Source: Bacteroidota bacterium (GTDB lineage: Bacteria; Bacteroidota; Bacteroidia; Chitinophagales; Saprospiraceae). From it: 40,506 nt of DNA. The DNA lies in contig JAFMBH010000029.1 of assembly GCA_017858735.1 (NCBI GenBank), forward strand, positions 1 to 40,506. The letters are read 5' to 3'. The notes under the pieces were generated by a model that had not been told where the DNA came from, made no database searches, and worked only from the letters and a program-made list of their open reading frames with translations. A program made the translations under genes and the position numbers. Shown here piece after piece: positions 1 through 21,400 of the stretch. How positions within the stretch are numbered: position 1 is the first letter of the stretch; every line of letters begins with the position of its first letter.

Positions 1-1535
1 TCCAGATTAAGAATACCATTTGTAGTATTAAAAACCCGGCCATTTAAGGATAGAGTAAGTTTATAAGGGCTTGTTCCGCCACTTATCATCACTTTCGCTT
101 TACCAGTAGTATCTCTCGGGCAAAGAACCCCTGTGGTGGTTACGTCAACAGCCAGCGGCACCAGTTTGTATTCTATATTAAAACAAGTATCTACCGGACA
201 AGAAGAGTTATCACTAACCTTCACGCAATACTTACCTGTGACCAATGTTTCAATGGTAGAAGTAGTTGCCCCATTATCCCATAAAAATGTGTAGGGTGCT
301 GAACCACCTACCACAGAAAGTGATATTTGACCATTATTATTTGAAGGAGCCCCTGTAACATGAGTTATGGTTGGCGTTACTCTTGGTTTACTTTGTTCTG
401 TCAAGGTTACAGACAATGATAACGTTGCATTTTGTGCATCGGTAACCGTCACTGAATAATTACCCGAACCTAATCTACTTAAATTCTGGACGGTTTCTCC
501 GTTACTCCATTTGTAAGAAAAAGGAGCAACGCCACCAGACAGTGATAAGGTTACTGAACCGGTACTTGATCCCTCGCATGGATTAACGACTATGGCAGGA
601 GCAAATTGAAGTTTACGAACCATTCTGACGCAAATCTCTGCTCTACAAGCAGTTGTATCACGAACTATAAGGCAATAATTACCTGTATCCAGATTTGATA
701 TATTCTTAGTATTTGCTGTATATGTGCCTGGTCCTGTCCAATTATAGTTAACCAGACCTTTTGTTCCCTGTACTGTTAAATCTATAGCCCCGTCATTTCC
801 ATTGTTTATATAGGTAGGTTGAACAGCGGAAATAGTTATCCCATCCGTTTGACCTATGGTGATGGAACGAAATAGTTGACACCCTGTTGCGTCTGTTAAC
901 GTTACGTTATAATTATCGGGCGCAAGATTTGTTTGATTTGCCTGAGATGGAAGACCTTTATCCCAAAGATAGGAATAAGCTGCTTCACCACCGGTAACTG
1001 TCAGCGCGATGGACCCCGTATTTCTCCCTAAACAAATGGCATCCACCTTTTGAGTAGAAAGACTAAGATTAGACTGTCTAATAACCTGTGGCGTTGACAC
1101 AATAGCGCAACCCAATGCGTCCGTAAGCGTTAATTGATAGGTACCCAGCGGAACGTTTTTAAGTTCTGGCAGAGCAGATAGCCCGCTACTCCAGGCATAA
1201 GTATAAGGTTTTTGTCCTCCTGTAACCACTGCTTTCAAGGTACCTAATTCTTGATTTGCACAACCTGCATCCGTTTTGGATACCTGAGAAATCAACGCAG
1301 AATCAGGTCCTGGCACAACAAAAGTAGCGATAGCATTCAGAGGATTTCCAACATTGGTTACGGTAACTGTGTAAGAACCCTTTGCTACATTTTGTAAATC
1401 TTTTGATGTTGCCTGATTACTCCAAAGATAAGTAAAGGCACCTGTACCTTGTGAAACTGAAATACTAATACCTCCTGTGTTGGAACCAAAGCAAGAAACT
1501 GCTTTAATGGTAGCGCCAGGTGCTATGACTGGTGG
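1..1535 (-). repeat. SprB-like repeat array (coding, at least seven units)
   Basis: Seven units of about 72-78 residues lie in the giant surface protein, at roughly 1535-1315, 1320-1085, 1085-855, 855-620, 620-405, 405-180 and 180-1 (the last cut by the window edge). Each carries a cysteine-containing first strand ('..C.G...G'), a GG-P-Y/F turn before a Tyr/Trp strand, and a terminal 'G.Y.V.V.D..GC' strand. This matches the SprB repeat family known from Flavobacterium gliding adhesins. Function here is inferred. Confidence 0.75.
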
Positions 1536-3869
1536 TACTAAGTTACCAGAACGAACGGTTCCTGGAATAAACTGATAAGGGACGGACGTTTCGTTTTTAT
1601 CTAAAATTTCTGTCGTAACCGATGGGTCGTGAGTTACTCTGGAAGAACCATTTTCACTTAATACAAGAAAACATAATTTAAATATCACCGTATTATTTGG
1701 CACTGAGACCCCTGCTACATTAGGATCTAACCAGGAAAGTTTGATTTTTCCCGGAAGATTTGTTCCAGTTCCAGGTAAACCAAATTGTGATTCATTTAAT
1801 CCAGCAAGATTAAAATCAGATACAGTTTCAAATTTTAGTCTTATTGGATCATAAGCCAGACTAAACTCAAGACCAAGAATATCCTTGAAATTTAAAACTG
1901 AAACAGGCATACAAACCTTATCGCCAACTACCCCCGTTGCATCGCCTACCTTAACGGTGAAATCAGTCGTATTCACTAAACCTTCTATGAATACTTCACC
2001 GTCTGTAAATCCGGGAGTAAGTTTATTTTGCACGCTATCTAAAACTTCAAAATTGCTCTTATTAAAGCGAATGGGTACTGAACCAGCACCTTGTGCTGTA
2101 AAACAAGCTTTAAAAAGAACTGTATTATTGGCAACCGAAATACCTTTTGTATCTGAACTGGTCCATGACATCCTGATATTTCCAGCGACGTTGGAACCTT
2201 GTCCGGGTAAACCAAAAGAATTGATACTTAAATCTTGCAGTCCGAAGCGGGTAACAGAATCAAAGCGTAATTGAGCGGCGTCATAAGTTAATGTAAATTG
2301 AGTCGCTGAAATTTTATTAAAAGCTGTTGCACTAATATCAATACAAATGGGTTCATTTGCTTCAACGGCCCCACCAGTAACCTTAAAAGTAGGCCCGTTT
2401 ACTGAAGCACCACCACTACCCGGTTTACCCAGGGAAATCGTACCTGATTGCGTGGTATAGGGAAGAAGTACATCTGAAGCGTTGATAATTTCACCCGTTG
2501 TAGGAATCGAAATAGAGGTATTTCCGGAAGAATCTCTTGCTGTGAAACATAGTTCAAACAATGAAGCTCCATCGGCAAGTGTCGTTTTTTGACCTCTGCT
2601 ATCAAACCATCCTAAGATAAGTGATCCGGGTCTATTTAAGCCATCACCTGGTTTTCCAACGGCTGATTCCTCAAAACCTCCAGGAGATAAGGTACTATTA
2701 AAATTCCGAATTGATTTGAACAATAGTTTAGTTGAATCGTAATTCATTTTAAATTGTAATCCAATAATATCTTTAAATCCCTCTATAGTAACGGGAACAC
2801 AAACCTCAGAACCAAATCCAACCGATGCATTTCCCACTAAAACCTTAAAATTATCAGAGGTAGTTGCCCCACCGGCACCTACTGTAATCTGACCCTGTCG
2901 CCCTTCAAAAACAACTTCTTTGTTACTTGAATCAATAATTTCTGCAATAGCATCAAAAGTAATATTGGTTGTTCCATCCGTTTGTTTAGCTGCGAAACAG
3001 ACTTGAAAGATAGAAAGATTATCTGCCAGGGTTACTCCTTTTGCTTCATTATCAAACCAGGAACATTTAATTTTTCCCAATGGATTTGTACCCCGACCCG
3101 GCATTCCAAATTGTACGGTATCAAGCCCGGGAACCTGAAAATTTCTCAATGAGTTGAAGGTCAACAAGTTGGTATTATAATTCATAGTGAATTCCATACC
3201 GGCTATTTTAGTAAAGTTTTGGGTATTCACATTCAAACAAAAACTTTCCCCTTTTGCTACCGTTTTATCTTCAATGTCAAGTATGAAGTTGCCCACATTG
3301 CCCGTACTTCCGCCTCCACCGGTGCTTCCGCCCCCACCGGTGCTTCCGCCTCCACCAGTTCCACCTCCAGTACCTGTGCCGCCTGCCCCAATGATAATAA
3401 CAGGAGTATTTACGGTACTGGGAACCACAGCCTCTGAAAGATTTATAATTTCAATATTATTTACTCTGATAGTATCTTGTGCATCAGCATTAACCGCGGT
3501 AAAGCAAACTTGAAACAAGGTACTTGCAGCGGGTATAGTGATTCCCTTCAACTGGTCATCAAACCAAGCCATATTTAACTTGGCAGATTTACCATCAGCT
3601 GCCACAACATTGTTAAAAGCACCTGATAAACCCGACACTGCAGGATTAAATCCCTGCACCTTACTGTAGGTTAATTTTTGAGGATTATAATTCAGCGCTA
3701 ATTGAAACCCAATCAAACTGGTAAAATTAGTTACCGTCACATTTGAGCAAAAAGCAGCCCCTTTAGCCACTGTGGTATCTTTAATAGCTATGTTTAACGT
3801 TTGCGCGTTTAAGAAATGACTGAAAATTAAAAGCCCAAAAATAAGAACCCGGCTAATTGTTAACTTCAT
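1..3869 (-). CDS. Giant cohesin-array / SprB-repeat surface protein (3' end outside window)
   Basis: An open frame runs from an ATG at 3869 to the left edge, 1289 codons without a stop, so the C-terminus is missing. A signal peptide (MKLTISRVLIFGLLIFSHFL, then NAQ) predicts export. Residues about 24-160, 193-328, 338-480, 492-620 and 636-770 form five repeats of one cohesin-like unit, each with a 'G(F/L)(Q/E)F.(L/M).Y(N/D)' strand, then 'W(F/L)D...KG(V/I)' and '(L/I)F..CF'. A Gly4-Ser-Thr linker separates repeats 1 and 2. From about residue 778 onward come at least seven SprB-like repeats, marked by 'G(S/A)..(L/V)(T/S)V.GG..PY.(Y/F).W..G' and 'L..G.Y.(V/L).(V/L).D'. Cohesins bind dockerins in cellulosomes, and SprB repeats occur in gliding adhesins. 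A scaffold or adhesin role is inferred. A T9SS CTD is expected beyond the edge but cannot be seen. The small ORFs on the opposite strand are shadows. Confidence 0.85.
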   Translation of the reverse strand, partial: MKLTISRVLIFGLLIFSHFLNAQTLNIAIKDTTVAKGAAFCSNVTVTNFTSLIGFQLALNYNPQKLTYSKVQGFNPAVSGLSGAFNNVVAADGKSAKLNMAWFDDQLKGITIPAASTLFQVCFTAVNADAQDTIRVNNIEIINLSEAVVPSTVNTPVIIIGAGGTGTGGGTGGGGSTGGGGSTGGGGSTGNVGNFILDIEDKTVAKGESFCLNVNTQNFTKIAGMEFTMNYNTNLLTFNSLRNFQVPGLDTVQFGMPGRGTNPLGKIKCSWFDNEAKGVTLADNLSIFQVCFAAKQTDGTTNITFDAIAEIIDSSNKEVVFEGRQGQITVGAGGATTSDNFKVLVGNASVGFGSEVCVPVTIEGFKDIIGLQFKMNYDSTKLLFKSIRNFNSTLSPGGFEESAVGKPGDGLNRPGSLILGWFDSRGQKTTLADGASLFELCFTARDSSGNTSISIPTTGEIINASDVLLPYTTQSGTISLGKPGSGGASVNGPTFKVTGGAVEANEPICIDISATAFNKISATQFTLTYDAAQLRFDSVTRFGLQDLSINSFGLPGQGSNVAGNIRMSWTSSDTKGISVANNTVLFKACFTAQGAGSVPIRFNKSNFEVLDSVQNKLTPGFTDGEVFIEGLVNTTDFTVKVGDATGVVGDKVCMPVSVLNFKDILGLEFSLAYDPIRLKFETVSDFNLAGLNESQFGLPGTGTNLPGKIKLSWLDPNVAGVSVPNNTVIFKLCFLVLSENGSSRVTHDPSVTTEILDKNETSVPYQFIPGTVRSGNLVPPVIAPGATIKAVSCFGSNTGGISISVSQGTGAFTYLWSNQATSKDLQNVAKGSYTVTVTNVGNPLNAIATFVVPGPDSALISQVSKTDAGCANQELGTLKAVVTGGQKPYTYAWSSGLSALPELKNVPLGTYQLTLTDALGCAIVSTPQVIRQSNLSLSTQKVDAICLGRNTGSIALTVTGGEAAYSYLWDKGLPSQANQTNLAPDNYNVTLTDATGCQLFRSITIGQTDGITISAVQPTYINNGNDGAIDLTVQGTKGLVNYNWTGPGTYTANTKNISNLDTGNYCLIVRDTTACRAEICVRMVRKLQFAPAIVVNPCEGSSTGSVTLSLSGGVAPFSYKWSNGETVQNLSRLGSGNYSVTVTDAQNATLSLSVTLTEQSKPRVTPTITHVTGAPSNNNGQISLSVVGGSAPYTFLWDNGATTSTIETLVTGKYCVKVSDNSSCPVDTCFNIEYKLVPLAVDVTTTGVLCPRDTTGKAKVMISGGTSPYKLTLSLNGRVFNTTNGILNL
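1570..3800 (-). repeat. Five tandem cohesin-like domain repeats (coding)
   Basis: Within the giant surface protein the same domain of about 130-145 residues occurs five times, at roughly 3800-3390, 3293-2886, 2858-2432, 2396-2012 and 1964-1562. All copies share a start like '(N/D)F.V..G...', a central 'Y(D/N)...L.F.S...F' and the 'SW.D...KGVS' strand. Copies 2-5 also share an 'FG.PG.G.N..G.I' loop, while copy 1 has a different sequence there. The copies are diverged at DNA level, so the duplications are old. Boundaries are approximate, read by eye. Confidence 0.75.
3307..3378 (-). repeat. 18-bp tandem repeat encoding a Gly4-Ser-Thr linker
   Basis: Three near-identical 18-bp units (3307-3324, 3325-3342, 3343-3360; plus-strand cttccgcctccaccggtg with one to three changes) and a degenerate fourth (3361-3378) encode Gly-Gly-Gly-Gly-Ser-Thr-type hexapeptides between cohesin-like domains 1 and 2. 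A multiple-of-three unit can gain or lose copies by slippage without frameshift, changing linker length only. Confidence 0.9.
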
Positions 3870-3919
3870 AAAAATCGGTTTTGGAATGAATGCTTAAATA
3901 AAAATGCAGCAAAAAAGCA

Positions 3920-4723
3920 TCAATTTGCTGGCATATATATGATTTGTTGATTTGACTGAAAATTACCTTGTTTAATTTGCAAATTATAGTAGCCTCTTGC
4001 TGGAAAATCAGAAACAGGCATTTGCAGAAATTGGACCCCAGAGCCAATTTTATTTAACCATCTTTTTATCACACTCCCTTTAACGTCCGTTAAGGTGTAT
4101 TCTACGGTACCTGGAGCAGACGAAAACCAGTTTACGGAAACATCCCCAGAGGAAACTGGATTTGGGTAAACTTTATCAATCCTTAACTGCTCTGAATCAA
4201 TACCTTGTGCCGAAGATGTTGCTCCCATTTTTAGAACCACGAAACCGTCAACATAGAATGCCGTAATCGCTTTATATGAGCTATCAGCCGTTTCCCTAAT
4301 ATTGGTAGGCGTGTCAATGAAAGTTATAGGAGATTTGAGACCTCTCAGACCTTTTACTTTAAAATAAAGAGAAAAAATAGATTTTTTATCGGGCAGGGTC
4401 ACTCCTTTCAACGACTCGTCAAACCATTGGAAGCTAAGTACTCCTTTTGATTTTGAAACCAAGCCAAAATGATCATCCAACTTCAAAGGCAAACCAAAAT
4501 TCCCTACGCTATCTAAAACAAGTAGGGTTGAATCCCAGGCAACATTGAATTGTGTGCCCACAATAAATTTGAAATTACTTACTTGAATATCTGCTTTATA
4601 CACATCAACATTTGACATAATAGAATCTTTGGGTGCCCAATAAGAAACATTCTGGGCCACCATGTGATTCAGAAAAACAAAAGACAATAATAAACCAACA
4701 TAAAGAGATAACAACTTACTCAT
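3920..4723 (-). CDS. T9SS-secreted single-cohesin protein
   Basis: This 267-residue protein starts with a signal peptide (about residues 1-24, ending MVAQ). A single cohesin-like domain follows (about 30-165), whose strands match those of the giant neighbour: 'NFKFIVGTQFNVAWD', 'SFQWFDESLKGVTLP' and 'SIFSLYFKVKG'. The last 85 residues begin 'IDKVYPNPVSSGDVSV', a T9SS type A sorting domain, so the product is probably secreted through the outer membrane and attached to the surface. The stop lies 50 bp upstream of the giant cohesin gene on the same strand, so the two may be co-transcribed. One cohesin plus one surface-sorting tail suits a cell-surface anchor for a dockerin-bearing partner, but binding is inference. 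It could instead be a structural protein with an Ig-like domain. Confidence 0.85.
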   Translation of the reverse strand: MSKLLSLYVGLLLSFVFLNHMVAQNVSYWAPKDSIMSNVDVYKADIQVSNFKFIVGTQFNVAWDSTLLVLDSVGNFGLPLKLDDHFGLVSKSKGVLSFQWFDESLKGVTLPDKKSIFSLYFKVKGLRGLKSPITFIDTPTNIRETADSSYKAITAFYVDGFVVLKMGATSSAQGIDSEQLRIDKVYPNPVSSGDVSVNWFSSAPGTVEYTLTDVKGSVIKRWLNKIGSGVQFLQMPVSDFPARGYYNLQIKQGNFQSNQQIIYMPAN

Positions 4724-4763
4724 TTTCTAAATTTTAATTTAACACATTGAACCAAAACCATTA

Positions 4764-4771
4764 CAAAATTA
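4764..4771 (-). promoter_or_regulatory. Candidate Bacteroidota -7 element (TAATTTTG)
   Basis: The minus strand reads TAATTTTG here, matching the TAnnTTTG consensus, 41 nt upstream of the 4723 start codon. No clear TTTG -33 element lies at the right distance, so this is only a candidate. Confidence 0.3.
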
Positions 4772-4805
4772 AGGAAATAAGTTAAAAAATATGACCATTT
4801 GTGCG

Positions 4806-7800
4806 TCATTCAAATTTGACCATTTTTAGCGTCCTTTTATACTCTGCAGATTCTATGGTAAAATAATAAATACCTGGGGAATGAAAGGTATTTTTTTCAA
4901 AATCCAGCACATGTTCCCCGGCACTAAACCATTGATTTGACTGCTTGATTAATCTTCCAGTAACATCGGTAATACTCCAATTCACTAAACTTTGAGAAGG
5001 AATTTGAAACCAAACATGGGTAGTTTCGGTAAAAGGATTCGGGAAATTTTGCTTTACTTCCGTAAAATCAATCGATTTACTTTTTTCTATCCAACCTAAC
5101 TCTAAACGCAATAAATCATTATTTATATATGCCTCAGGGGACATAAATCTGGAATTTAAAGAAAGGGCGTCTTTAATAAAGCCATCCTTTTTAGCTTTAA
5201 GCACAATGGTAGTCAGCGCTGTATCGGTAGTGCTTCCATTCCAGCTGGCTGTTAGCAGACCATCCTGAGGAAAAAATCCAAAAAATTCTTTGGACGCCAG
5301 ACCTTGTTTCATTTCAACCCAATCAAACACCTTATCATCGAATTGCAATGCAAATTGGAATCCTTCCAGACCCTTTGTATTTTTTAATAAAATTGGAATT
5401 TCTACTAACTGACCTGCCTCAAAAAATTCATTTTCTAAAAATAAATTCCAGGTTCCCGTTTCCTCACCACTTCTTATTCCGGGAGTAACCGGACCATTAA
5501 TTTGTGCAGAACCATTTACATCTCCGATTTTAATACCTATAAAATCAGCCCTTTTGTGCCCATCAATGGGATTGTAAGAAACCTCTTCAGGGAAAGGTGT
5601 TTTCCAGGGGTTATTTGGATCCGGGAAAACAAAAGAGGAGCTAACAAACCGCCAGCTTTCATTCGACTGGAAAGATAAATCAACTCCGAGTATCAACTTT
5701 CTTAACTGAATCAAATCGATGGTACTCAGTGTTTTTGAATTATTTACATCGGCCGCTATAATTTTATAGGGAGAATCAAAAGGCTGTACATTCAAAATAT
5801 GTTTACTTATCAGCACTAAATCGAAAGTAGTTATCCCATTTAAAAAGCCTTTATTAAGCGAAGGCCTGGCAGTATAATTTCTATTTAAAGTCAGGGACGG
5901 AATAGAATATCTTCCATCGATGGCAGTATTCACTGTCGATGTAGAGGTGCCTGACAGTCTTACTGAAACGCCTTCGAGTCTCGCTTGATTTTCATTGGTG
6001 ATAATCCCTGATATTGATGCAGAGCCACTACCTTTACAAATATTAATGTTATCTTCCACATTGATATAAGTGGTACAAAAACTGTGATTCCCTTTGTTAT
6101 CCCATGCATGAATTTCAACAAAAACCAAGCCTGCCGTATCTGCACACGTTAGCATAATATCTTTAGAATCTCTATTAAATGGCGTACCTACTCTATTGAT
6201 TGAATAATGGGTAATTTGATTCTGCCTGTTATTCTGCGCATTAACTGCACCCTGACCATTACAATCAAAAACAGCAGCGCTAATAAAATCTGAAGCCCAG
6301 ACGACCATCATCCCCTCTCCATCCAACCCTGGCATTAAACCAGTAACCACACCATTTAAACAAAGCGGGGTTGTGGCTATTTTATCAGCAACCACGAAAG
6401 GAATCCTACTAACGGCAACATTACCACAACCATCTCTTACAGACATCAAAAGATCATGCTTCCCTTCAGGTAAATTTTTCAATTTCACACTTCCCGTTGC
6501 TAAAGAATCTGTAGTCATACTGGTGTTTGCCGCTAAGGTCCAATCAGATTGAAAGGTGATAGGTGCGGCTACTGCAGTACCTTGATTTAAGGCCACACTT
6601 ACAGCCGTTATAGTTAGGTTACTTGGACATAGATCGGCGGCTTTGAAACGCACATCAATATTAGCCAAACAGGTATTGGGAAAAGTAGGAAAAGTATCTG
6701 GCACAGGCACATTTATAATAGGTGGCGTGGCATCAAATATTTTAATTATCTGAGTATATTGGTAAGAAAATGCTGGCGTAGAATCTCTCGTAAACGTAGG
6801 CCATATTGGATTAGGAAGAAAGCACGATTTGTTATCATTTTTAAATACAAAAGGCGTTCCCAGTGGTTTAGGTGAGTTATCCTGAGTGGCAGGGAAAATT
6901 CTTTCCCTATAATTAAAAGCGGAATAATTGGTTGGAACTCTGTCCTTTGAAATAAAGAACTCTTCTACCCCGTTTGTGCCGGGAGTTGTTCCTCTTGTGA
7001 AGGTGGTATTATTTAATTCCCTGTCTCTTACGAGTAAAAAATATCCAGAACCCTCCGCGACATCATATTGGTCAGAAAAATTCCCATTCCCATTTTGATC
7101 CCATTTTCGTGGAAGCACCTGTGTAAATTTACCCGGATCGATGGTATTCGGGCATGAACTGGCCCATTCACCAAATTCGCACCAATTAATAACGGTATAA
7201 GTTCTATACTCTTTGGAACAAACATTGGTTTCAGAACTATCCGCTGCAAATTTTGTGATGGACAGGTTGACTGCTAAAATATCACAGGCCACCTCATACG
7301 TTTCCATAACAGGAATAGTCATAGGAACCTGACAATTTAAATTGATGTCGGCTGGTAATAAAATATCATATTCGTGAACAGGCAATACTCTTACTCTTTG
7401 GGTACAAAGATTAGTTCTAACAACCTCCCCCTTTACTGTCTTAACTGCCACCCATTTTCTTGTATAAAAACCTGCGCCGCAAGTCAAACTTGAATCTAAT
7501 GAATACTCCACTGTACCAGAACATTCCAGCCCACCGATAATAGGTGTTCCAAAACGTGAGTTGGCCGTTTGAACATCGTAGAGTATAAAACGGTCTTCAG
7601 GTTTATTACAATAAAAGAAAGCTTCCGCAGGCGCCTGGCAGACCGGAGTAGTCTTGTCTTCTATATTTAACATTAACCAACAAAAAGAAGTATTACCCTG
7701 TATATCAGTCCCGTGTAATTCAACCATAACGGGATTAAAAACATCACAACAAAAAAACTCGGCGAAATCTACTAAGGGTGTGTAGTAATTACCCGCCATA

Positions 7801-9434
7801 TCACCCGTAGTAATCAAGGTGAAATGTTCCCTTACATCCCCGTCTAAATCTAAATCATACTTCGTATTGGTAAGAAAATTATCGAGGCAATCGGCCTTAA
7901 CCGTCCTCCTCATTTTTAATTGAGCTACAGTACAATTATCCCTGGAACCCTCATTTATATCACTTACTGAAATTCTTGCATACGATAATCCTGCATTATC
8001 GCCATCGTAAAAACTACTCCCCGATGGTGGGGTTAAGGTAACATTTAATTGATCGTCACATATCATAGTAGGAGGCACCCTATCCACTACGTTAAAATAA
8101 AAGGTATCACGGGTAATATTCTGACAATTGTCATATACATCCAAAATCAGTCGATGCCTTCCAAAAGTGATACCCGTATAAAATATTTTACCATTTCTGG
8201 TAACGGCTGGATAAACACCATCGAACCAGGTAGTGCTGGGTTGAGGAAACCCATTGGTAATTCTATCTAACGATTGAATTCTATAACCAAAAGTTAATCT
8301 CGTAGCACAATTATCTGTAATTTTCATTCCCCATAAGAACGCCAAATTCGCAGTATCCACGTTTAATTCCGCTTCACAGGAAGTGGCAGCAGTTGATATA
8401 TCTACGGTATCTTTGAGCGTCGTAATTACGGGCTTTTCGATATCGAAGGCTCTTATCATCATGGTATCTTTAAAACGATTCCCTGTACACCAATCCCAAA
8501 TTTCTACCTGGACCAAAACTTTCTCGCCTGATTGACAGACAGGGATGGTATTTTTTACAACAGAAGTCGTATATGCGCAAGTTAAATCAAATAAACTGAC
8601 ATCGCGACCTGTTCTTGGGTGTACCGCTCTATAATTTGCTCTGATAACGCTATCGATACCTCCCTGAACCTGAGAAGATGAGCAAACATTATAAATAAGG
8701 GTATCTCTGGATGGTGGTGGTAAAAATAAAGCAGAAGAAGGTCTTTTAAACCTTATAATTTGATTGATTGTCGTATCATTTGAACGGGAGTCAATAGCCT
8801 GAAAAGACCTTCTTATGGTAGCAAAAATACTATCTGTCGAACAATTCGTTTGAGACAAAAAATCAGTTACTTTAATTTGAATTTGTCCGCCGCAAAGATC
8901 TGTAAATGTTGGCATACCCATATAATACCGATAGCCGGGCACCCGCCAGCTACCATCGACATTATTCACAAAACTAACATCATTACACCATAGGTCGATA
9001 GTATCAATTAAAGCAAAAGCAGCAGCATTTAATACCGGAGGTGCTTCATCTGTAGCCGTTATGGTACCTTGACAGACAACGAGCGTTCCTTTAAAAACAG
9101 CATAAGTCCAACCATCACCCTGAGGACTAATGCCATCAATAATATTATTGTTAATAGAATTTAAATCGGCAATTTTAAGAACCATTCCTGTAGTATCACA
9201 AGTCCCGGCTGTATTCCCAGCGTTCAGAAATATATTTTTAAGAAATAAGGTACGCTGACAATTATCATTTAGCGTGACGTTTAAATCGGTACAACCACAA
9301 GGATTATTTTGTCCCCTTAAGGAAGGTAGATTAGTGAATAGTAATCCAAGAATTAACAATACAGAAGGAACCCTTAAAGAGACCTTTTTGATTGAATACT
9401 GGATATGTAAAATGGCGTTAAAATTTGTCTTCAT
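4806..9434 (-). CDS. Giant HYR-like / CNA-B / dockerin / cohesin / CTD surface protein
   Basis: A 1542-residue secreted protein with an N-terminal signal segment (hydrophobic stretch about 23-36, cleavage near SLRGQ). Residues about 45-1130 are a Cys-rich mosaic of HYR-like beta domains, visible from recurring boundaries such as 'ATDEAPPVL', 'VVDRVPPTMIC' and 'FDATPPIINV'. Then come a CNA-B/carboxypeptidase-regulatory-like domain (about 1136-1195, 'ISGIITNENQARLEGVSVRL'), a dockerin-like pair of hands ('TTFDLVLISKHIL', 'DVNNSKTLSTIDLIQLRKLI', about 1198-1250), a 'KIGDVNGSA' segment, a cohesin-like domain (about 1322-1440) and a T9SS type A CTD ('NFPNPFTETTHVWF', about 1460-1542). The tail from CNA-B to CTD has the same order as in the peroxidase at 11896-14760. 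Having both cohesin and dockerin on one chain could allow chaining, which is inference. No enzymatic domain was recognised. Confidence 0.85.
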   Translation of the reverse strand: MKTNFNAILHIQYSIKKVSLRVPSVLLILGLLFTNLPSLRGQNNPCGCTDLNVTLNDNCQRTLFLKNIFLNAGNTAGTCDTTGMVLKIADLNSINNNIIDGISPQGDGWTYAVFKGTLVVCQGTITATDEAPPVLNAAAFALIDTIDLWCNDVSFVNNVDGSWRVPGYRYYMGMPTFTDLCGGQIQIKVTDFLSQTNCSTDSIFATIRRSFQAIDSRSNDTTINQIIRFKRPSSALFLPPPSRDTLIYNVCSSSQVQGGIDSVIRANYRAVHPRTGRDVSLFDLTCAYTTSVVKNTIPVCQSGEKVLVQVEIWDWCTGNRFKDTMMIRAFDIEKPVITTLKDTVDISTAATSCEAELNVDTANLAFLWGMKITDNCATRLTFGYRIQSLDRITNGFPQPSTTWFDGVYPAVTRNGKIFYTGITFGRHRLILDVYDNCQNITRDTFYFNVVDRVPPTMICDDQLNVTLTPPSGSSFYDGDNAGLSYARISVSDINEGSRDNCTVAQLKMRRTVKADCLDNFLTNTKYDLDLDGDVREHFTLITTGDMAGNYYTPLVDFAEFFCCDVFNPVMVELHGTDIQGNTSFCWLMLNIEDKTTPVCQAPAEAFFYCNKPEDRFILYDVQTANSRFGTPIIGGLECSGTVEYSLDSSLTCGAGFYTRKWVAVKTVKGEVVRTNLCTQRVRVLPVHEYDILLPADINLNCQVPMTIPVMETYEVACDILAVNLSITKFAADSSETNVCSKEYRTYTVINWCEFGEWASSCPNTIDPGKFTQVLPRKWDQNGNGNFSDQYDVAEGSGYFLLVRDRELNNTTFTRGTTPGTNGVEEFFISKDRVPTNYSAFNYRERIFPATQDNSPKPLGTPFVFKNDNKSCFLPNPIWPTFTRDSTPAFSYQYTQIIKIFDATPPIINVPVPDTFPTFPNTCLANIDVRFKAADLCPSNLTITAVSVALNQGTAVAAPITFQSDWTLAANTSMTTDSLATGSVKLKNLPEGKHDLLMSVRDGCGNVAVSRIPFVVADKIATTPLCLNGVVTGLMPGLDGEGMMVVWASDFISAAVFDCNGQGAVNAQNNRQNQITHYSINRVGTPFNRDSKDIMLTCADTAGLVFVEIHAWDNKGNHSFCTTYINVEDNINICKGSGSASISGIITNENQARLEGVSVRLSGTSTSTVNTAIDGRYSIPSLTLNRNYTARPSLNKGFLNGITTFDLVLISKHILNVQPFDSPYKIIAADVNNSKTLSTIDLIQLRKLILGVDLSFQSNESWRFVSSSFVFPDPNNPWKTPFPEEVSYNPIDGHKRADFIGIKIGDVNGSAQINGPVTPGIRSGEETGTWNLFLENEFFEAGQLVEIPILLKNTKGLEGFQFALQFDDKVFDWVEMKQGLASKEFFGFFPQDGLLTASWNGSTTDTALTTIVLKAKKDGFIKDALSLNSRFMSPEAYINNDLLRLELGWIEKSKSIDFTEVKQNFPNPFTETTHVWFQIPSQSLVNWSITDVTGRLIKQSNQWFSAGEHVLDFEKNTFHSPGIYYFTIESAEYKRTLKMVKFE

Positions 9435-9526
9435 TTCGTATCATATATATTATCAGGTCTGATTGTCAATCCAAAAAGCATACCATTTTTTTATTATACA
9501 TAGTATTTTTAGAAATAAAATATCAG

Positions 9527-9540
9527 CGTGTTTAAACACG
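9527..9540. promoter_or_regulatory. 14-bp perfect palindrome (possible operator)
   Basis: The sequence cgtgtttaaacacg equals its own reverse complement. It lies 93 bp upstream of the giant surface protein's start, where a dimeric regulator could bind. No regulator gene is adjacent. Confidence 0.3.
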
Positions 9541-9575
9541 TATCACCGATATATGCACATACCAAGACAATGAAT

Positions 9576-9595
9576 CTGGTTATTTAACTAACCAG
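9576..9595 (-). terminator. Hairpin downstream of fadH-like gene
   Basis: CTGGTTA and TAACCAG form a perfect 7-bp stem with a 6-nt loop about 240 bp past the fadH stop. There is no U-tract on the minus strand, so termination is uncertain. It could equally be a 5' leader structure of the next gene. Confidence 0.25.
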
Positions 9596-9837
9596 GACAC
9601 CTAAAATGTAGGTTTTTTTTGAGAGAGACTATAATATATCGGCAAAACGCCGTTAAAGTATTCCTTGAAAAACGCACAAAAAAATTTAAAATTATAAGTT
9701 CGTCGAAAAAAATACTTCATGCAAATATATAAATAGAAATAATATACAACTACATTAAAATGTATTTTTTACAAATTTATTTTTATCATACTTTGAATAT
9801 CAAATAAATAAAAGGATTTGAACAGCGGAGAGGATCA

Positions 9838-11883
<2,046 letters not shown>

Positions 11884-11895
11884 TCAAATTACATG

Positions 11896-14760
11896 TTATT
11901 TTTGCAGCATCCAAATTTTGCCCGCACTTTTATGTCCCGAATCGGTAACAATATTATAAAAATAAAGGCCACTATGAGAAAGTCTGTCTCCGGAAATAAG
12001 CCAGTTTCCCCTTCCCGATGCCATTAATCTTCTTTCTTGCAAAACTACTTTTCCCGTTAAATCAAATACATTTAATACTCCAAAGGTAGATGCATCAAGC
12101 GTGTAGGGAATATTAGTTTCCTCTACAAATGGATTAGGATAAGGTGAATAGGTAGTAAAATCATTAATTTGATTTGGCAAAATAGTCATATTTATCTTTC
12201 CTGACGTCGCATCAGGCTGATAAATTTCCGGGGAAAGACCATCTGTTGCAAAGGATACCGCTTCACTAAAATAGCCCTGTTTTTTTGCTTTTAATTTCAG
12301 GTTAAATAACAACTGATTTTTTTCAAAAAAGGGAATATTGGTTCCAGAATAATTCCAGGAAACGTGAACTACATTTCTTTCTTTATCCCAATTAAGATTT
12401 GCCTCAAAAAAATCAGGTAAATTTGAACGTTGAATATCTTCCAGTTCAACCAAATCAGCATTTATTGCTAACGAAAATTGAAAACCACCCCAACGTCCTC
12501 CTTCTGAAAATTGAATGGGATAATTTACCTGTTGACCAGCAATAAAATCATTTTCACCGATAACAATAGAAGCCGCAACAGACGCTGCAGGAACTTCATT
12601 GTACCAATCACCATCGACATCCCCCTTTTTAACCAGGTAAAAATCTTGACGAGTACCATAAGGATTACTCTCTAAAAACTTTACCTTATTTGGAAAAGCC
12701 CCCATGTCAGAGGCCAGTGAAGAGACGTATTGCCAGCTATTTTCTTCTACGAAATTTGAGGAATAACCAAGGATTAATTTTCGCAACATAATAATATCCA
12801 AGGAAGAAACTCCACCAGAATTATCAACATCTGCGGCAACCAATGAAGGAATAGATTCAATTCTATTATTACCGAGGATATGATTTTGGATCAAAAGAAT
12901 ATCCTTAGTGGAAATGCCAGCTAATGGATTGGCTACATCGGTGGCGAGAACAAATTCGTAAGTTTTACAAGCCGATAAATTTTTTACTGAGAATTCCCCT
13001 AACGCATTAGTCGAATGAATCACCTGATTTGAAAAATACACGCCCATATTAGAAATAGGCACTTCGTTCACATTTTTGAAACTAAAAGAAGCTTCCATCT
13101 CCATTTTTTCACAAACCTCAGAATAGTTCACCTGATTAAAAATCAGCGACTGCATTTTTTTAATGGCTGTATTAGCTAATACCAAATGGCTAAACTTCAC
13201 TTCACGAATTAAATTTTTATCATCGACACTTAAGACGGGATCCACCTCGTAATAGAATCTATCGCCATCTCTTAGATTTGTAAAGGTAACGATTAAAAAA
13301 TGCTTCATCGTTTCTCCAAAAATAGTACCCTCTGACTTTCTTTCCGAGAGCAGGGCCACCCATAAATCGATAGCTTCAATATCTCTGAAAAGAGATTCCA
13401 GTTTTCTGGTCAGGGTTACATTATCGGGATTAATATCGGCAATAGATTTATATGCCGGCAATTGTAGCGCTTTTCTCAACTCATTTATGGAAGGCAGACC
13501 CCTTTCCCGTCCTCTTTGAATATTAATAGCAGCCAGATCGAAACCTCCCTGTCCTGGTTTACCGAACAAAAAATTACGAATATCGTCCACTATTTTTGAA
13601 TCAAAACGCTGTTGAACCTGTGAACCCATGCCTTGAAGAAAAGGCTCAATTCCGCCACTTTCTTTAATCGCTGATACTCTAAAGAATACATCCCTCAATT
13701 TGAGGTCAGGCACACCTTGAAAAGGAGTGCCATCTGTATTCAATCTTCTTATTTTACTACTCAACAGAGTGTGACCCAATCGAAAACCGGCTCCTGTAAA
13801 CTCGTTACTTACTGTTGGGTTAATATTATTTTTGTAACCTGAATACGCAGGCAAATGAATACCTACCGACGACAACCATTCATTAAAAAGAATTTGCTGA
13901 ATAAAGCCCCCTACTATTTTCCTGGCATATTGATAAATTTCTTCATCGGACCAGGTTGGATTTTTTAATTTGATTAAATCACACTGTCTGTTATGTTCCC
14001 GAACAAAAAGGGTATGAACGGAGGTTAGCAGAGGATTTTCATTGGCACGGACATCGCCTGCAACGAACAATTTAGACTCTTCCCTGGTATCATTTCCCAT
14101 CTGTGGTGCCAGAAGATCAACAGGAGAATCTAATTCTCCGCTTAATGTATTGTAAGGCATTAAATTACCTTCGGACACCTTAAGTTTTCCATTTTTAAAT
14201 GACCTTAACCAATTTGCCCTACTTATATCTGAGCCATAAACAGCCGAACCGTCAATAAAGGAAGTAACCATATTGACATGTTGCCTGGGATTAGATACGG
14301 AATTGCCAGAATTTTTATCAAAAAGGTTGCGTTTCATTTGAATAACCGCATCACCCTCATCATTTGGATCAAACCAAATATCTCCTGGTGGCACGGAGAT
14401 ATCAAATCTTTCTGAATTATTTGGTGTTAATCCAAATTCATGATCTATAAACTGTCCAAAAACCCAACAAAAATCACTTAAATTTGATGGATCTTTTATA
14501 TCAACTTCATCTTGAGCAAAAATTTCATTACTAATAACCCTGCCACTGATTCTCCCTGTGAAAGGTTGAAAAATACCATCCTGATAGGCAGCCTTTCCGA
14601 GTCTGACCAGATTTGTACCTGTTGCGCCCCAGGAAGGATTCGAGAGGTTATTAAAAGTACCGTCAATAGTTCTACATTTGTTATCTAAGGACGCCTGTGA
14701 AAACCCCAGCTCAAATAACAAACCATTCACTAAAATTAATAGTAGTAATTTTGGGTACAT
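11896..14760 (-). CDS. Animal-type haem peroxidase with dockerin, cohesin and T9SS CTD (peroxidockerin)
   Basis: The ATG at 14760 is preferred because it places a signal peptide (MYPKLLLLILVNGLLFELGF) at the N-terminus; an in-frame start at 14823 would put 21 residues before it. The 954-residue product carries an animal haem peroxidase domain (about 25-560): distal 'GQFIDHEF' with His107, 'SFIDGSAVYGS', catalytic 'REHNR' near 254, proximal 'RLGHTLL' with His330, and 'NIQRGRERGLPS'. A short CNA-B-like domain follows, then a dockerin ('ISTKDILLIQNHILG', 'DVDNSGGVSSLDIIMLRKLI', about 605-665), 'KKGDVDGDW', a cohesin-like domain (about 724-857) and a type A CTD ('PYPNPFVEETNIPY', about 870-954). 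Bacterial peroxidases with dockerins are known as peroxidockerins in the peroxidase-cyclooxygenase superfamily. It probably oxidises halides or phenolics with H2O2 at the cell surface. Substrate is unknown. Confidence 0.9.
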   Translation of the reverse strand: MYPKLLLLILVNGLLFELGFSQASLDNKCRTIDGTFNNLSNPSWGATGTNLVRLGKAAYQDGIFQPFTGRISGRVISNEIFAQDEVDIKDPSNLSDFCWVFGQFIDHEFGLTPNNSERFDISVPPGDIWFDPNDEGDAVIQMKRNLFDKNSGNSVSNPRQHVNMVTSFIDGSAVYGSDISRANWLRSFKNGKLKVSEGNLMPYNTLSGELDSPVDLLAPQMGNDTREESKLFVAGDVRANENPLLTSVHTLFVREHNRQCDLIKLKNPTWSDEEIYQYARKIVGGFIQQILFNEWLSSVGIHLPAYSGYKNNINPTVSNEFTGAGFRLGHTLLSSKIRRLNTDGTPFQGVPDLKLRDVFFRVSAIKESGGIEPFLQGMGSQVQQRFDSKIVDDIRNFLFGKPGQGGFDLAAINIQRGRERGLPSINELRKALQLPAYKSIADINPDNVTLTRKLESLFRDIEAIDLWVALLSERKSEGTIFGETMKHFLIVTFTNLRDGDRFYYEVDPVLSVDDKNLIREVKFSHLVLANTAIKKMQSLIFNQVNYSEVCEKMEMEASFSFKNVNEVPISNMGVYFSNQVIHSTNALGEFSVKNLSACKTYEFVLATDVANPLAGISTKDILLIQNHILGNNRIESIPSLVAADVDNSGGVSSLDIIMLRKLILGYSSNFVEENSWQYVSSLASDMGAFPNKVKFLESNPYGTRQDFYLVKKGDVDGDWYNEVPAASVAASIVIGENDFIAGQQVNYPIQFSEGGRWGGFQFSLAINADLVELEDIQRSNLPDFFEANLNWDKERNVVHVSWNYSGTNIPFFEKNQLLFNLKLKAKKQGYFSEAVSFATDGLSPEIYQPDATSGKINMTILPNQINDFTTYSPYPNPFVEETNIPYTLDASTFGVLNVFDLTGKVVLQERRLMASGRGNWLISGDRLSHSGLYFYNIVTDSGHKSAGKIWMLQK

Positions 14761-14799
14761 GGTTATATAGATTAACCGATATTGAAAATAATAAGCGAA

Positions 14800-14807
14800 C
14801 AAAAATA
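14800..14807 (-). promoter_or_regulatory. Candidate -7 element (TATTTTTG) for the peroxidase gene
   Basis: The minus strand reads TATTTTTG, fitting TAnnTTTG, 40 nt upstream of the preferred 14760 start. It falls inside the extra codons implied by the 14823 start, which favours the shorter protein. No well-spaced -33 TTTG was found. Confidence 0.3.
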
Positions 14808-14923
14808 CTTTTTTTTTCGACAAAATGTTTGAAAAACAAGTTAAAATAACGGGGAGACCTATTGAAATATAAAGTTTTCAACCAGCAAGCTCCACGACAA
14901 AAAGTTTGAAAATAAAAATAGGT

Positions 14924-18412: not shown

Positions 18413-18455
18413 AATCTTATGAATAAGGTTCTTATTTTTGTATTATTATACCCTA

Positions 18456-21400
18456 ATGAAAAAAATATCTATGTTCTATTCACGCGCTCCCCTTTTCGTT
18501 TTGTTTTTATTTTTTTTCAGTTTTACCTCGGCTCAATCCTATTGGAAAAGTCAATGGGTTACCTTGCAGGTCAATGTTAAAACATTAAAAACAGATAAGG
18601 GAAGACGTTGGAGCGTGGACATAGATCTATTTAAAAAAGCCTTATCCCCAAAAGAAAAAACAACTATTTTGCTACCCCATCCCAATGGGGAATTAATTTC
18701 CTTTGACCTAAAAGAAGAAAAGGTAATGGCAAAGGAGCTTGCTGATAAATATCCTAATATTAGAGCGTTCTCGGGACACGCATCCTCAAATAAACAGGGA
18801 TCCATACGTTTGGAATTGAATTCCCAACAAATATTCGCCGTTGTTAAAAAAGACGGAGAAGAATGGTATGTCGAACCTGACCCCAATAACGATTCATTTA
18901 TAATAAGTTATGATGCTCAAAACAGGATAATACCCGAAGCCTCCTCGGTACAATGTGAGACAAAAGAAAAGAGCATTGAGGACGTCATAAGAGCGCAGGA
19001 AAATGCCCTTTCATTTGGTAGTAGTTTAAGAAATGCCAAAGTAACATTAAAAAAATATCGATTTGCTCTTTCATGTACGGCTGAATACGCCAAATCCAAA
19101 GGGGGTACCATCGAATCGGTATTGACCAGTTTTGTCACGTCGGTGAACCGTATGAATCAAATTTTATTGCGGGAAGCAGCGGTACAACTGGAGTTGATTG
19201 CAAAAAATGATTCCTTAATATTTTTTGATGCCGAAAAGGATCCGTTTCCAGAACCCAGCAATCTTCCCCAGCTGTTAAATCAGAATGGCGCGGTTATAAA
19301 CAGCATGGTTGGGGCAAATAGTTACGATATTGGCCATATATTCACTTCGGGATGCAGTGGTGGCGTGGTGGGTATTGCCACATTGGGGAATGTATGTAGC
19401 AGTGGCAAGGCCCGTGGCGTTACCTGTCATTATTCATCCAATTTACTGAGCATCACACTTAACGTATTTGCCCATGAATTGGGGCATCAATTTTCCTGCG
19501 CTCACTCATTTAACAGTTGCGCTGGAAATCAGGATAATGTGGCTCCGGCAGACGGTTTTGAACCAGGAGGAGGTTCTACCATCATGTCTTATGCAAGTGC
19601 TTGTGGTGCTGATAATTATCAATTCAGCGTAGATGACTATTTTCATGGAGGAAGTTTGGACGACTTCATTCCCTTTGTCCAAACGGGTTCCGGTGCTGGT
19701 TGCGGTATAAATATACCAACCCCGAATGATGTACCCGAGTTAACTTTAGCTTATAAGAATGGGTTTTCGATTCCTATTTCCACACCCTTCAAACTGGAGG
19801 CGATGGCAAAGGATGCCGATAATGATAAATTGACTTATAATTGGGAACAGATGGATTCCGGGCCTACGACCCCCCTGGGAGAGCCCAAAAATAATTCACC
19901 CCTTTTCCGCTCATTCCCCGCCAGGGAAGAGTCCTTTCGTGTTTTCCCTCAAATGCCAGGTTTACTTGCAGGAAGCGCATCCAGAGTGGAAATTTTACCA
20001 AATTATGCCAGAAACTTATCTTTTCGTTGTACCGTAAGGGATAATAACCCTCAAGGTGGTGCTGTCATCTGGAAAGATGTACAATTTAAAGTGACCGATC
20101 AGGCTGGTCCATTTATAGTAAATTCGCCTGACTCAAAAGCAGTGGCAGGGGGAACCCTCAACGTTTCGTGGCAAGTTGCCGGAACCAATAAATTACCTGT
20201 TAATTGTCAGTTCGTACATATAAAATTATCGGTAGATAAGGGATTAACCTTCCCATTTACATTGGCTTTGAATACACCAAATGACGGGAATGCCCTCGTT
20301 ACTCTGCCTCAGGTAAGCTCCGGAAATGCCAGACTTTTAATCGAAGCAGCTGATAATATATTTTTCCAGGTTTCGGAAAAAGAATTTGTCATTGAAAATC
20401 CGACCGCTCCTCTTTTTTCCTGGAAATTAGAACCGGCAGGTATTCCCTTGCATTGTTTACCAAATAATGCCGTTTTTAACATCACCACCAATAGTGCCCT
20501 GGGATTTGATTCCACCCTAACCCTCGGTGTTCAAAGTGGTCTTCCTGCTGATGCTACCTTTTCATTCAGCAAAAACCCTGTAAAACCTGGCGATTCTGTT
20601 CAATTGACTCTCTTTTTTAAAGGCATTCGCAGAGATACCTTACCATTGGTGCTTACAGCGAAAACATCTGCCGGAACAGTGTATCTGCAGGAGGCCTTTA
20701 TTCAAACTTTATCGACCGATTTTAATGGCTTGAAAACTACTAAACCATTTAACGGGCAGTCAGGAATTATACTTTCCACCCCTTTTGAGTGGGCCACTTT
20801 ACCGAATGCCGAAACGTATGATTTTCAATTATCAACCTCACCCCGCTTCGGTCAAGACGATTTGGTAAGTAGTTCCCAAGGCTTAAAAACAGGAACATTC
20901 ACTCCCACCGCATTTCTGTCTGACAATCAACTATTTTATTGGAGAGTACGCGCAAATAACGCGTGTATTGCCGGTGATTGGTCCCCGGTTTCAACTTTTC
21001 ATACTGCAGTTACTAAATGTGAAGCGAGCAGAAATACTAATCTTCTTACTATTCCAGGACAGGGAACGCCTACCGTTGAGAGTTCCATCGTTATAAATGA
21101 AGATGGAAACATAAAAGATATTAATATCCCTCTTATAAAAGCAACATTCGAATATGTGAGAAATTTAAGAGTCTCCCTCGTTAGCCCAAAAGGTACTGAG
21201 GTAATCCTTTTCGACCAAAGATGTGCATTGACCAATAAATTCATCCTGGGTTTTGATGATGAATCACCTAAAGATCTAATTTGTCCTCCCGATGATGCTA
21301 TTGTTTTCAAACCCAATCAACCTCTTTCTGCTTTTAAAGGGGAACCTTTAAGAGGCACCTGGATTCTTCGCTTTCGGGTGGTTAAACGGGAAAGTATTAC

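What the first reader, a model, noticed from the sequence alone, without database searches (positions are those of the whole stretch)
1..14760. Candidate T9SS-exported cohesin/dockerin surface assembly
Four large minus-strand genes in 15 kb encode a protein with five tandem cohesin-like domains (array scaffold), a single-cohesin + CTD protein (possible anchor), and two dockerin-bearing T9SS clients (a HYR-type giant and a haem peroxidase). Cohesin-dockerin pairing builds cellulosomes in Firmicutes. Seeing scaffold-like, anchor-like and dockerin-enzyme-like parts together with T9SS tails suggests a cellulosome-like complex on a Bacteroidota surface, carrying an oxidative enzyme instead of glycosidases. 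Domain presence is read from sequence; binding is inference.
Basis: partly seen in the sequence, partly recalled or inferred. Interest (0 to 1): 0.78.

Follow-up and report, generated by a model that had tools for sequence, protein, structure and literature searches.

The report
T9SS-anchored cohesin scaffold with dockerin clients
A family of environmental bacteria seems to carry on its surface a beaded anchor protein and a set of partner proteins with matching plugs, using the plug-and-socket domains of the cellulose-digesting cellulosome but, as far as seen, mostly for adhesin-like proteins and not for sugar-cutting enzymes.

Summary
In detail: five cohesins on one protein, a cohesin+CTD protein, and two dockerin-bearing T9SS proteins (one a haem peroxidase) lie in 15 kb. 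(1) The scaffold is cut by the contig end; its other half (own contig C212, 55-bp exact overlap; intact in relatives) ends, in relatives, in a type-B CHU_C signal, with PorP/SprF next door, so the scaffold probably anchors itself like the gliding adhesin SprB. (2) Both clients carry a cohesin-like domain between dockerin and CTD; AlphaFold2 places it rigidly against the dockerin module (one protein folded, pTM 0.90). (3) The set recurs across the family: of 37 sampled family genomes, 33 have array and dockerins, 1 dockerins only, 0 array only, 3 neither; one genus shows both states. HYR is the commonest cargo (14 of 31 clients scanned); no glycoside hydrolase was found; the peroxidase is a minority client that recurs in six genera. 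Array cohesins mostly carry a cysteine pair that client-tail cohesins lack. Best reading: a Ca2+-dependent surface assembly on a SprB-type scaffold. Trans binding is inferred, not shown; a cis-only role of the Doc-Coh tail is the main rival. New variant of a known kind.

The parts
3..3869 (-). Scaffold gene, 3' end cut by contig end: leader, five cohesins (3405-3794, 2895-3284, 2445-2846, 2001-2390, 1563-1958), then SprB repeats (about 3-1553)
   Evidence: uncut homologues of 1804-1812 aa in L022, L024, L026, L027, CHU_C tail in L024
3920..4723 (-). Single cohesin (4247-4636) + type A T9SS CTD (3938-4171)
   Evidence: directly upstream of the array in 20 of 25 distinct array loci
4806..9434 (-). 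HYR-like giant client: N-terminal region, CarboxypepD_reg (5868-6017), dockerin module with extension (5493-5882), cohesin-like (5094-5447), type A CTD (4815-5045)
Evidence: AF2 model of the tail.
5715..5750 (-). Second Ca2+ loop of the P0003 dockerin, canonical ligand positions
   Evidence: D1 85/85, N or D at 3 85/85, S5 82/85, S/T9 85/85, D12 85/85
9838..11865 (-). OYE/FadH-type FMN oxidoreductase, no CTD match; kept in the genus cluster, role in the system not shown
   Evidence: between the two clients in same-genus loci L025, L027, L028
11896..14823 (-). Haem peroxidase client (likely start 14760): An_peroxidase 13138-14673, dockerin module 12592-12966, cohesin-like 12181-12570, type A CTD 11917-12141

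Best explanation
This is a surface assembly built around a T9SS type-B scaffold. The scaffold is exported by the T9SS through its CHU_C tail, stays on the outer membrane through its neighbour PorP/SprF (as published for SprB and SprF in Flavobacterium), and holds 3 to about 11 cohesins out on an SprB-repeat stalk. Type-A T9SS cargo (HYR/Ig adhesin-like giants, a haem peroxidase) docks onto these cohesins by an asymmetric, Ca2+-binding dockerin module (CarboxypepD_reg-dockerin-extension). Nearly every client also brings its own cohesin-like domain next to the dockerin, which is either a resting cap for the dockerin or a socket for the next client, so clients could be locked, or chained, on the scaffold. 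Shown here: domain content, linkage, co-occurrence, loop conservation, the predicted rigid Doc-Coh unit. Inferred: trans binding, Ca2+ dependence, stoichiometry, and any link to gliding.
For: Gene order in the genus (peroxidase, OYE, HYR-like client, Coh-CTD, 5xCoh/SprB/CHU_C, PorP/SprF, two more Doc-Coh-CTD clients) is unbroken in L024+L025 and seen in parts in the other same-genus loci; the own genome continues on C212 with a 55-bp exact overlap. PorP/SprF directly downstream of the array in 10 of 10 other-genus loci scanned (15 had a candidate gene). CHU_C and SprB on 6 of 6 such array proteins scanned. Order-wide sample of 198 genomes: tandem arrays in 33, all of one family; in that family's 37 genomes 33 both, 1 dockerin only, 0 array only, 3 neither; two members of genus g7 (G012, G215) lack both while four have both. 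The six dockerin-positive genomes without a tandem-array match all hold cohesins (one, G138, has four in one 2183-aa frame); the three dockerin-less family members give none with the array-cohesin model. Dockerins per genome 7-21 (21 scored at most) with an array, 1-4 without. All seven same-genus genomes have a dockerin in a 642-643-aa frame, which in the own genome ends right after the dockerin with no cis cohesin or CTD, and a free secreted cohesin (163-165-aa frames); such proteins need a partner in trans. The genome has PorU at 1199.9 bits.
Against: No binding data. AF2 gives a rigid cis Doc-Coh unit, which could mean that the dockerin is already occupied. Dockerins, in part as Doc-Coh tails, also occur in six sampled genomes without a detected tandem array. 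In the first sample of 40 relatives, 4 genomes had a PF00963 cohesin without the dockerin (G012, G031, G034, G038) and G019 the reverse by Pfam. Co-occurrence is not corrected for relatedness, and g7 may stand for a single loss or gain. The cohesin-CTD gene is missing beside 4 of 24 arrays whose upstream gene is visible (L032, L043, L046, L047). Dockerin loop 1 lacks the position-5 ligand (L or M in 71 of 85).
Confidence: 0.55

Rival explanations
1. Cis-only structural cassette: dockerin and cohesin-like domain pair within one chain, forming a Ca2+-stabilised C-terminal knob that folds after T9SS export and shields or spaces the cargo; array cohesins are merely Ig-like adhesive beads. No intermolecular assembly.
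For: AF2 of the P0003 tail: pLDDT 94.4, pTM 0.90 over three modules although the linker block has pLDDT 66; of 8 own-genome dockerins 6 are followed by a cohesin-like domain by profile and 1 more by alignment alone; so are 95 of 96 dockerin ORFs of the named loci (but these loci were fetched with a Doc-Coh query); Doc-Coh tails occur without a detected tandem array, e.g. in G140, G094, G138.
Against: A dockerin in a 642-643-aa frame (no cis cohesin where read) and a free cohesin are kept in all seven same-genus genomes. Array and dockerins are present or absent together in 36 of 37 family genomes. Tail and array cohesins fall into largely separate groups (low resolution) and differ in cysteines.
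Confidence: 0.3
2. A cellulosome-like degradative complex whose main work is oxidative attack on polymers by the docked peroxidase.
For: Peroxidase clients of about 970-990 aa: dockerin seen in four same-genus genomes (own, G002, G003, G006) and in G007, G014, G020, G021; in G022 the cohesin-CTD part was seen in the frame.
Against: 1 of 31 scanned clients is an enzyme, none a glycoside hydrolase; no CBM match on the scaffolds scanned. Outside the genus the peroxidase lies on another contig than the array (G007, G014, G020, G021) or about 21 kb away (G022); contig breaks leave some doubt.
Confidence: 0.07
3. Unrelated surface proteins that share repeat domains and sit together by chance or common regulation.
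For: HYR, SprB and cohesin-like domains are common in surface proteins of this phylum (general knowledge).
Against: Recurring order Doc-Coh-CTD / Coh-CTD / array / PorP-SprF across genera and joint absence within one genus.
Confidence: 0.05

Closest known systems
Clostridial cellulosome (CipA-type scaffoldin, type I cohesin-dockerin)
   Same: Tandem cohesins on one non-catalytic secreted protein; dockerins on separate secreted proteins; profile matches to cellulosomal cohesins and dockerins
   Different: T9SS export; likely anchor is CHU_C + PorP/SprF; clients scanned are HYR/Ig-type proteins and a peroxidase; no GH and no CBM found; nearly every client has its own cohesin-like domain; dockerin halves are unlike each other
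Cellulosome-like complex proposed for Candidatus Stygibacter (Cloacimonadota), PMC8542988 (passages; section 7 in full)
   Same: Proposed scaffoldin with tandem cohesins and a CTD for attachment to the cell's own surface; dockerin proteins as clients; inferred from MAGs
   Different: There a 3,755-aa scaffold with CBMs and enzymes (GH18, GH57, peptidases); here an SprB/CHU_C scaffold with PorP/SprF, a Coh-CTD partner, Doc-Coh-CTD clients, and another phylum
SprB/SprF of Flavobacterium johnsoniae (PMC9143113 abstract and outline; PMC12618676 abstract and outline)
   Same: SprB repeats, type-B CTD, adjacent PorP/SprF partner
   Different: Here an N-terminal cohesin array precedes the SprB repeats; a motility role was not tested
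Clostridium perfringens NagJ cohesin and its dockerin partners (structures 2jh2, 2o4e, 2ozn, 2w1n; biology recalled)
   Same: NagJ's cohesin is the best solved-structure match that spans the tail cohesin; there too the modules sit on the secreted enzymes themselves (recalled)
   Different: Not T9SS; here a dedicated scaffold exists
Planctosome of freshwater Planctomycetes (named in PMC8542988 section 7; the paper itself not read)
   Same: Non-cellulose cellulosome-like structure
   Different: Another phylum; details not compared

Membership tests
Cohesin PF00963 | Pfam curated score | tested here: met
   Met for the array: five over the cut-off. Not met for P0002 (19.2) and the P0003 tail (18.9), cut-off 24.1; the P0005 tail is not listed at E 1. 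These three are called cohesin-like on profile and fold grounds
Dockerin PF00404 | Two Ca2+ loops each followed by a helix | tested here: inconclusive
   Helices predicted at 71-81, 90-96, 106-117 of the tail; loop 2 canonical in 82-85 of 85; loop 1 keeps positions 1 (84/85), 3 (D or N 66/85), 9 and 12 (85/85), but position 5 is L or M in 71/85. Metal binding not measured
Dockerin PF00404 | Pfam curated score 22.9 | tested here: inconclusive
   P0005 21.1 or 26.8; P0003 14.8 or 21.6
T9SS type A cargo | TIGR04183 CTD and signal peptide | tested here: met
   P0002, P0003, P0005 over the cut-off; N-terminal hydrophobic leaders by reading only; PorU in the genome
T9SS type B cargo anchored by PorP/SprF | CHU_C tail plus linked PorP/SprF gene | tested here: met
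   CHU_C in homologues L024, L037, L038, L039, L064, L097; PorP/SprF 10 of 10 scanned and on own C212. Not visible in the window, which ends inside the gene; the C212 half was not itself scanned for CHU_C
Cellulosome | Tandem-cohesin scaffold plus dockerin proteins in one genome | tested here: met
Cellulosome | Glycoside hydrolase cargo | tested here: not met
   None in 31 clients, in P0003 and P0005, in four other own-genome dockerin proteins, or in the G002 counterparts of the two C212 clients
Cellulosome | Carbohydrate-binding module on the scaffold | tested here: not met
   None matched in the seven scaffolds scanned
Cellulosome | Measured cohesin-dockerin binding | not testable with these tools
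   Needs purified modules; the fold tool took single natural chains, so no co-fold with an array cohesin

The most novel reading that the evidence does not exclude
A new architecture of extracellular assembly: self-capped dockerin clients. Each client leaves the T9SS with its dockerin held by its own cohesin; scaffold cohesins, cross-braced by a disulphide, exchange with the cap, freeing the client's cohesin to take the next client, so chains of adhesins and a peroxidase grow on a SprB-type, possibly mobile, anchor.
Probability: 0.2. Interest if true: 0.82.

Novelty: new variant of a known kind. Interest (0 to 1): 0.62.

Why it matters
Cohesin-dockerin pairing is known mainly from plant-fibre digestion by Gram-positives. 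A family-wide version on a T9SS type-B scaffold would show that the same plug-and-socket logic is used by Bacteroidota to build an adhesive surface coat, would give jobs to many uncharacterised giant surface proteins of Saprospiraceae (abundant in wastewater plants; PMC9304909, start of abstract seen in the listing), and would offer a new, asymmetric, possibly self-capped module pair for protein engineering. It is testable in isolates: Lewinella cohaerens DSM 23179 and Phaeodactylibacter xiamenensis KD52 carry Doc-Coh tails, the latter also an array.

Tried and rejected
Coevolution between dockerin and tail cohesin (mean-field couplings on 85 sequences, Neff 78) was mostly noise: only 37 of the top 120 pairs lay within one domain; not used. 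No coordinates or PAE are returned, so the Doc-Coh interface could not be inspected. Foldseek's best matches are cohesins with TM by query of 0.30 at most, thus about one domain; longer alignments to pilins are poor (rmsd near 15). The idea that the single-cohesin protein is the anchor was dropped: it has a type A CTD, while the scaffold has the type B tail with PorP/SprF. A true cellulosome was rejected on cargo and CBM. Rows dropped before counts: the cargo scan used 31 of 35 complete clients of 450-1750 aa (four near-identical same-genus proteins, of L049 and L050, left out), out of 58 complete among 94 Doc-Coh-CTD ORFs. The cohesin tree used 129 of 279 domains (55 array, 55 tail, 15 Coh-CTD, 4 other) after thinning and random sampling. 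The downstream-gene scan took 10 of 15 candidates. Hit lists are truncated, so positions not printed were not used. One search scored at most 12 candidates per genome and at most 21.
Full report
What is in the window. The window is contig C61 of a 4.23-Mb genome in 222 contigs. The nearest named relatives of its Doc-Coh tail (90-94% identity) are in Saprospiraceae, Bacteroidota and Haliscomenobacteraceae MAGs. Five minus-strand genes fill 1-14823: scaffold (cut by the contig end), cohesin-CTD, HYR-like client, OYE-type oxidoreductase, haem-peroxidase client. Domain calls are from Pfam and NCBIfam, from profiles built here and from profile matches to solved structures.

The missing half. Own contig C212 ends with a 55-bp exact overlap to the window's first bases. 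It carries the SprB-rich later part of the scaffold, a PorP/SprF gene and two more clients with dockerin + cohesin-like + CTD. In the genus the order is seen unbroken in L024+L025; L022, L026, L027 and L028 show parts of it in the same order. The uncut scaffold of L024 is 1809 aa: five cohesins, SprB repeats, CHU_C.

A recurring set. Among 25 distinct array loci (one is the window), 20 have the cohesin-CTD gene directly upstream on the same strand: 12 of the 17 found by cohesin search and 8 of the 8 found by Doc-Coh search, the latter biased. Of the other five, one is cut upstream and four (L032, L043, L046, L047) lack it. The next gene downstream was PorP/SprF in 10 of 10 loci scanned; five further arrays have SprB and CHU_C, one of them cut at its 5' end. 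Arrays hold 3 to 8 cohesins per ORF; in Phaeodactylibacter xiamenensis two overlapping ORFs together hold about 11, one cohesin being split between them.

Co-occurrence. In 198 genomes drawn from the order, tandem cohesins at E 1e-35 occur in 33 and the dockerin module at E 1e-15 in 39. In the window's family (37 genomes) the split is 33 both, 1 dockerin only, 0 array only, 3 neither (chance if independent 4/7770, hand calculation, not corrected for kinship). Genus g7 has four genomes with both and two with neither. The six dockerin-positive genomes without a tandem match still have cohesins, and one (G138) has four in a 2183-aa frame; the three family members without dockerins give none with the array-cohesin model, although G012 has one weak PF00963 match (4.2e-4). 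In the earlier sample of 40 relatives PF00963 matched 27 and the dockerin 24: 23 both, 4 cohesin only (G012, G031, G034, G038), and G019 dockerin only by Pfam, with three tail matches.

The clients. In 31 clients from named genomes 14 match HYR and 9 HYR_4C (overlap not counted), others Ig-like domains; one, from the same genus, is a peroxidase; no glycoside hydrolase appears in the list. Peroxidase clients of about 970 aa recur in G007, G014, G020 and G021 with a dockerin in frame, and in G022 with the cohesin-CTD part in frame; there they are on another contig than the array, or about 21 kb away (G022), so their place beside the array is seen only in the window's genus. Shorter peroxidases in frames of 630-701 aa are also common.

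Dockerin detail. Across 85 tails (2 from the window) the second loop is canonical and the first is altered in a conserved way: D/N1, mostly D/N3, L/M5, N6, G7, S/T9, D12; a histidine of helix 1 is invariant. The two halves thus differ, unlike the near-symmetric halves of clostridial type I dockerins (recalled). The module is preceded by CarboxypepD_reg and followed by a conserved extension. AF2 gives pLDDT 94.4 and pTM 0.90 for CarboxypepD_reg + dockerin + extension + cohesin-like of P0003. Were the cohesin free to move, pTM would be expected near 0.6, because only about 56% of residues would superpose (my estimate), so the model fixes it against the rest. It does not tell which face is used, and no second tail was folded.

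Two cohesin classes. Tail and array cohesins fall into largely separate groups on a low-resolution tree (tail label 3 changes, array 6, against about 42 in shuffles; 25 of 126 inner branches well supported; a long-branch warning touches the P0005 tail). Of 116 distinct array cohesins, near-copies included, 94 have a cysteine near the first strand and one in a 'CF' motif; 0 of 118 tail and 0 of 22 cohesin-CTD domains do. A disulphide across the array cohesins, giving strength under load, is my inference.

How it most likely works. Scaffold and clients leave by the T9SS; the scaffold stays on its PorP/SprF partner, as published for SprB and SprF (PMC9143113, abstract). Clients dock through the dockerin. 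The dockerin-ended protein and the free cohesin protein, kept in all seven genomes of the genus (sequences read only in the own genome), argue that at least some pairing is in trans. What the client's own cohesin does, cap or next socket, is open.

Literature. Searches for cohesin/dockerin with Bacteroidetes or type IX secretion (20 of 104 papers listed), Saprospiraceae (1 of 1), Bacteroidota and T9SS (6 of 6), named Saprospirales genera (12 of 26) and gliding/SprB (10 of 18) showed no description of this system among the titles and abstract starts listed. The nearest are the Stygibacter proposal (PMC8542988, section 7) and a note of cohesin genes in one of three Saprospiraceae MAGs of seagrass banks (PMC8547425, passages). 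Only open-licence papers are held, so absence from print is not shown; Peer et al. 2009 on noncellulosomal modules could not be read.

Noticed in passing
own genome G000:C36, L031:6919-7404 (-): 161-aa protein that is a leader plus a single cohesin with no CTD; matching 163-165-aa frames in all seven genomes of the genus.
   Followed up: partly
own genome G000:C41, L035:7035-8936 (-): 633-aa protein ending in a dockerin with no cohesin and no CTD; matching 642-643-aa frames in all seven genomes of the genus.
   Followed up: partly
own genome G000:C132, L032:6952-12657 (+): Second cohesin array (5 cohesins by the profile built here, CHU_C) with PorP/SprF just upstream and no cohesin-CTD neighbour; a similar array in L046.
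   Followed up: partly
L073:12151-20326: Phaeodactylibacter xiamenensis array is split into two overlapping ORFs inside one cohesin; frameshift, assembly error or real is unknown.
   Followed up: no
L074:2-11071: 3689-aa frame with two Doc-Coh units, one internal (weak) and one before the CTD.
   Followed up: no
window 18438-22058 (+): Reprolysin-like metalloprotease with cadherin-like, P-proprotein and type A T9SS CTD matches, beside the cluster on the other strand.
   Followed up: no
window 26035-27303 (-): PF00144 (beta-lactamase family, which also holds other serine hydrolases) protein; substrate not known.
   Followed up: no
own genome: 20 PorP/SprF matches, some of them fragments, suggesting many separate type-B anchors.
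   Followed up: no
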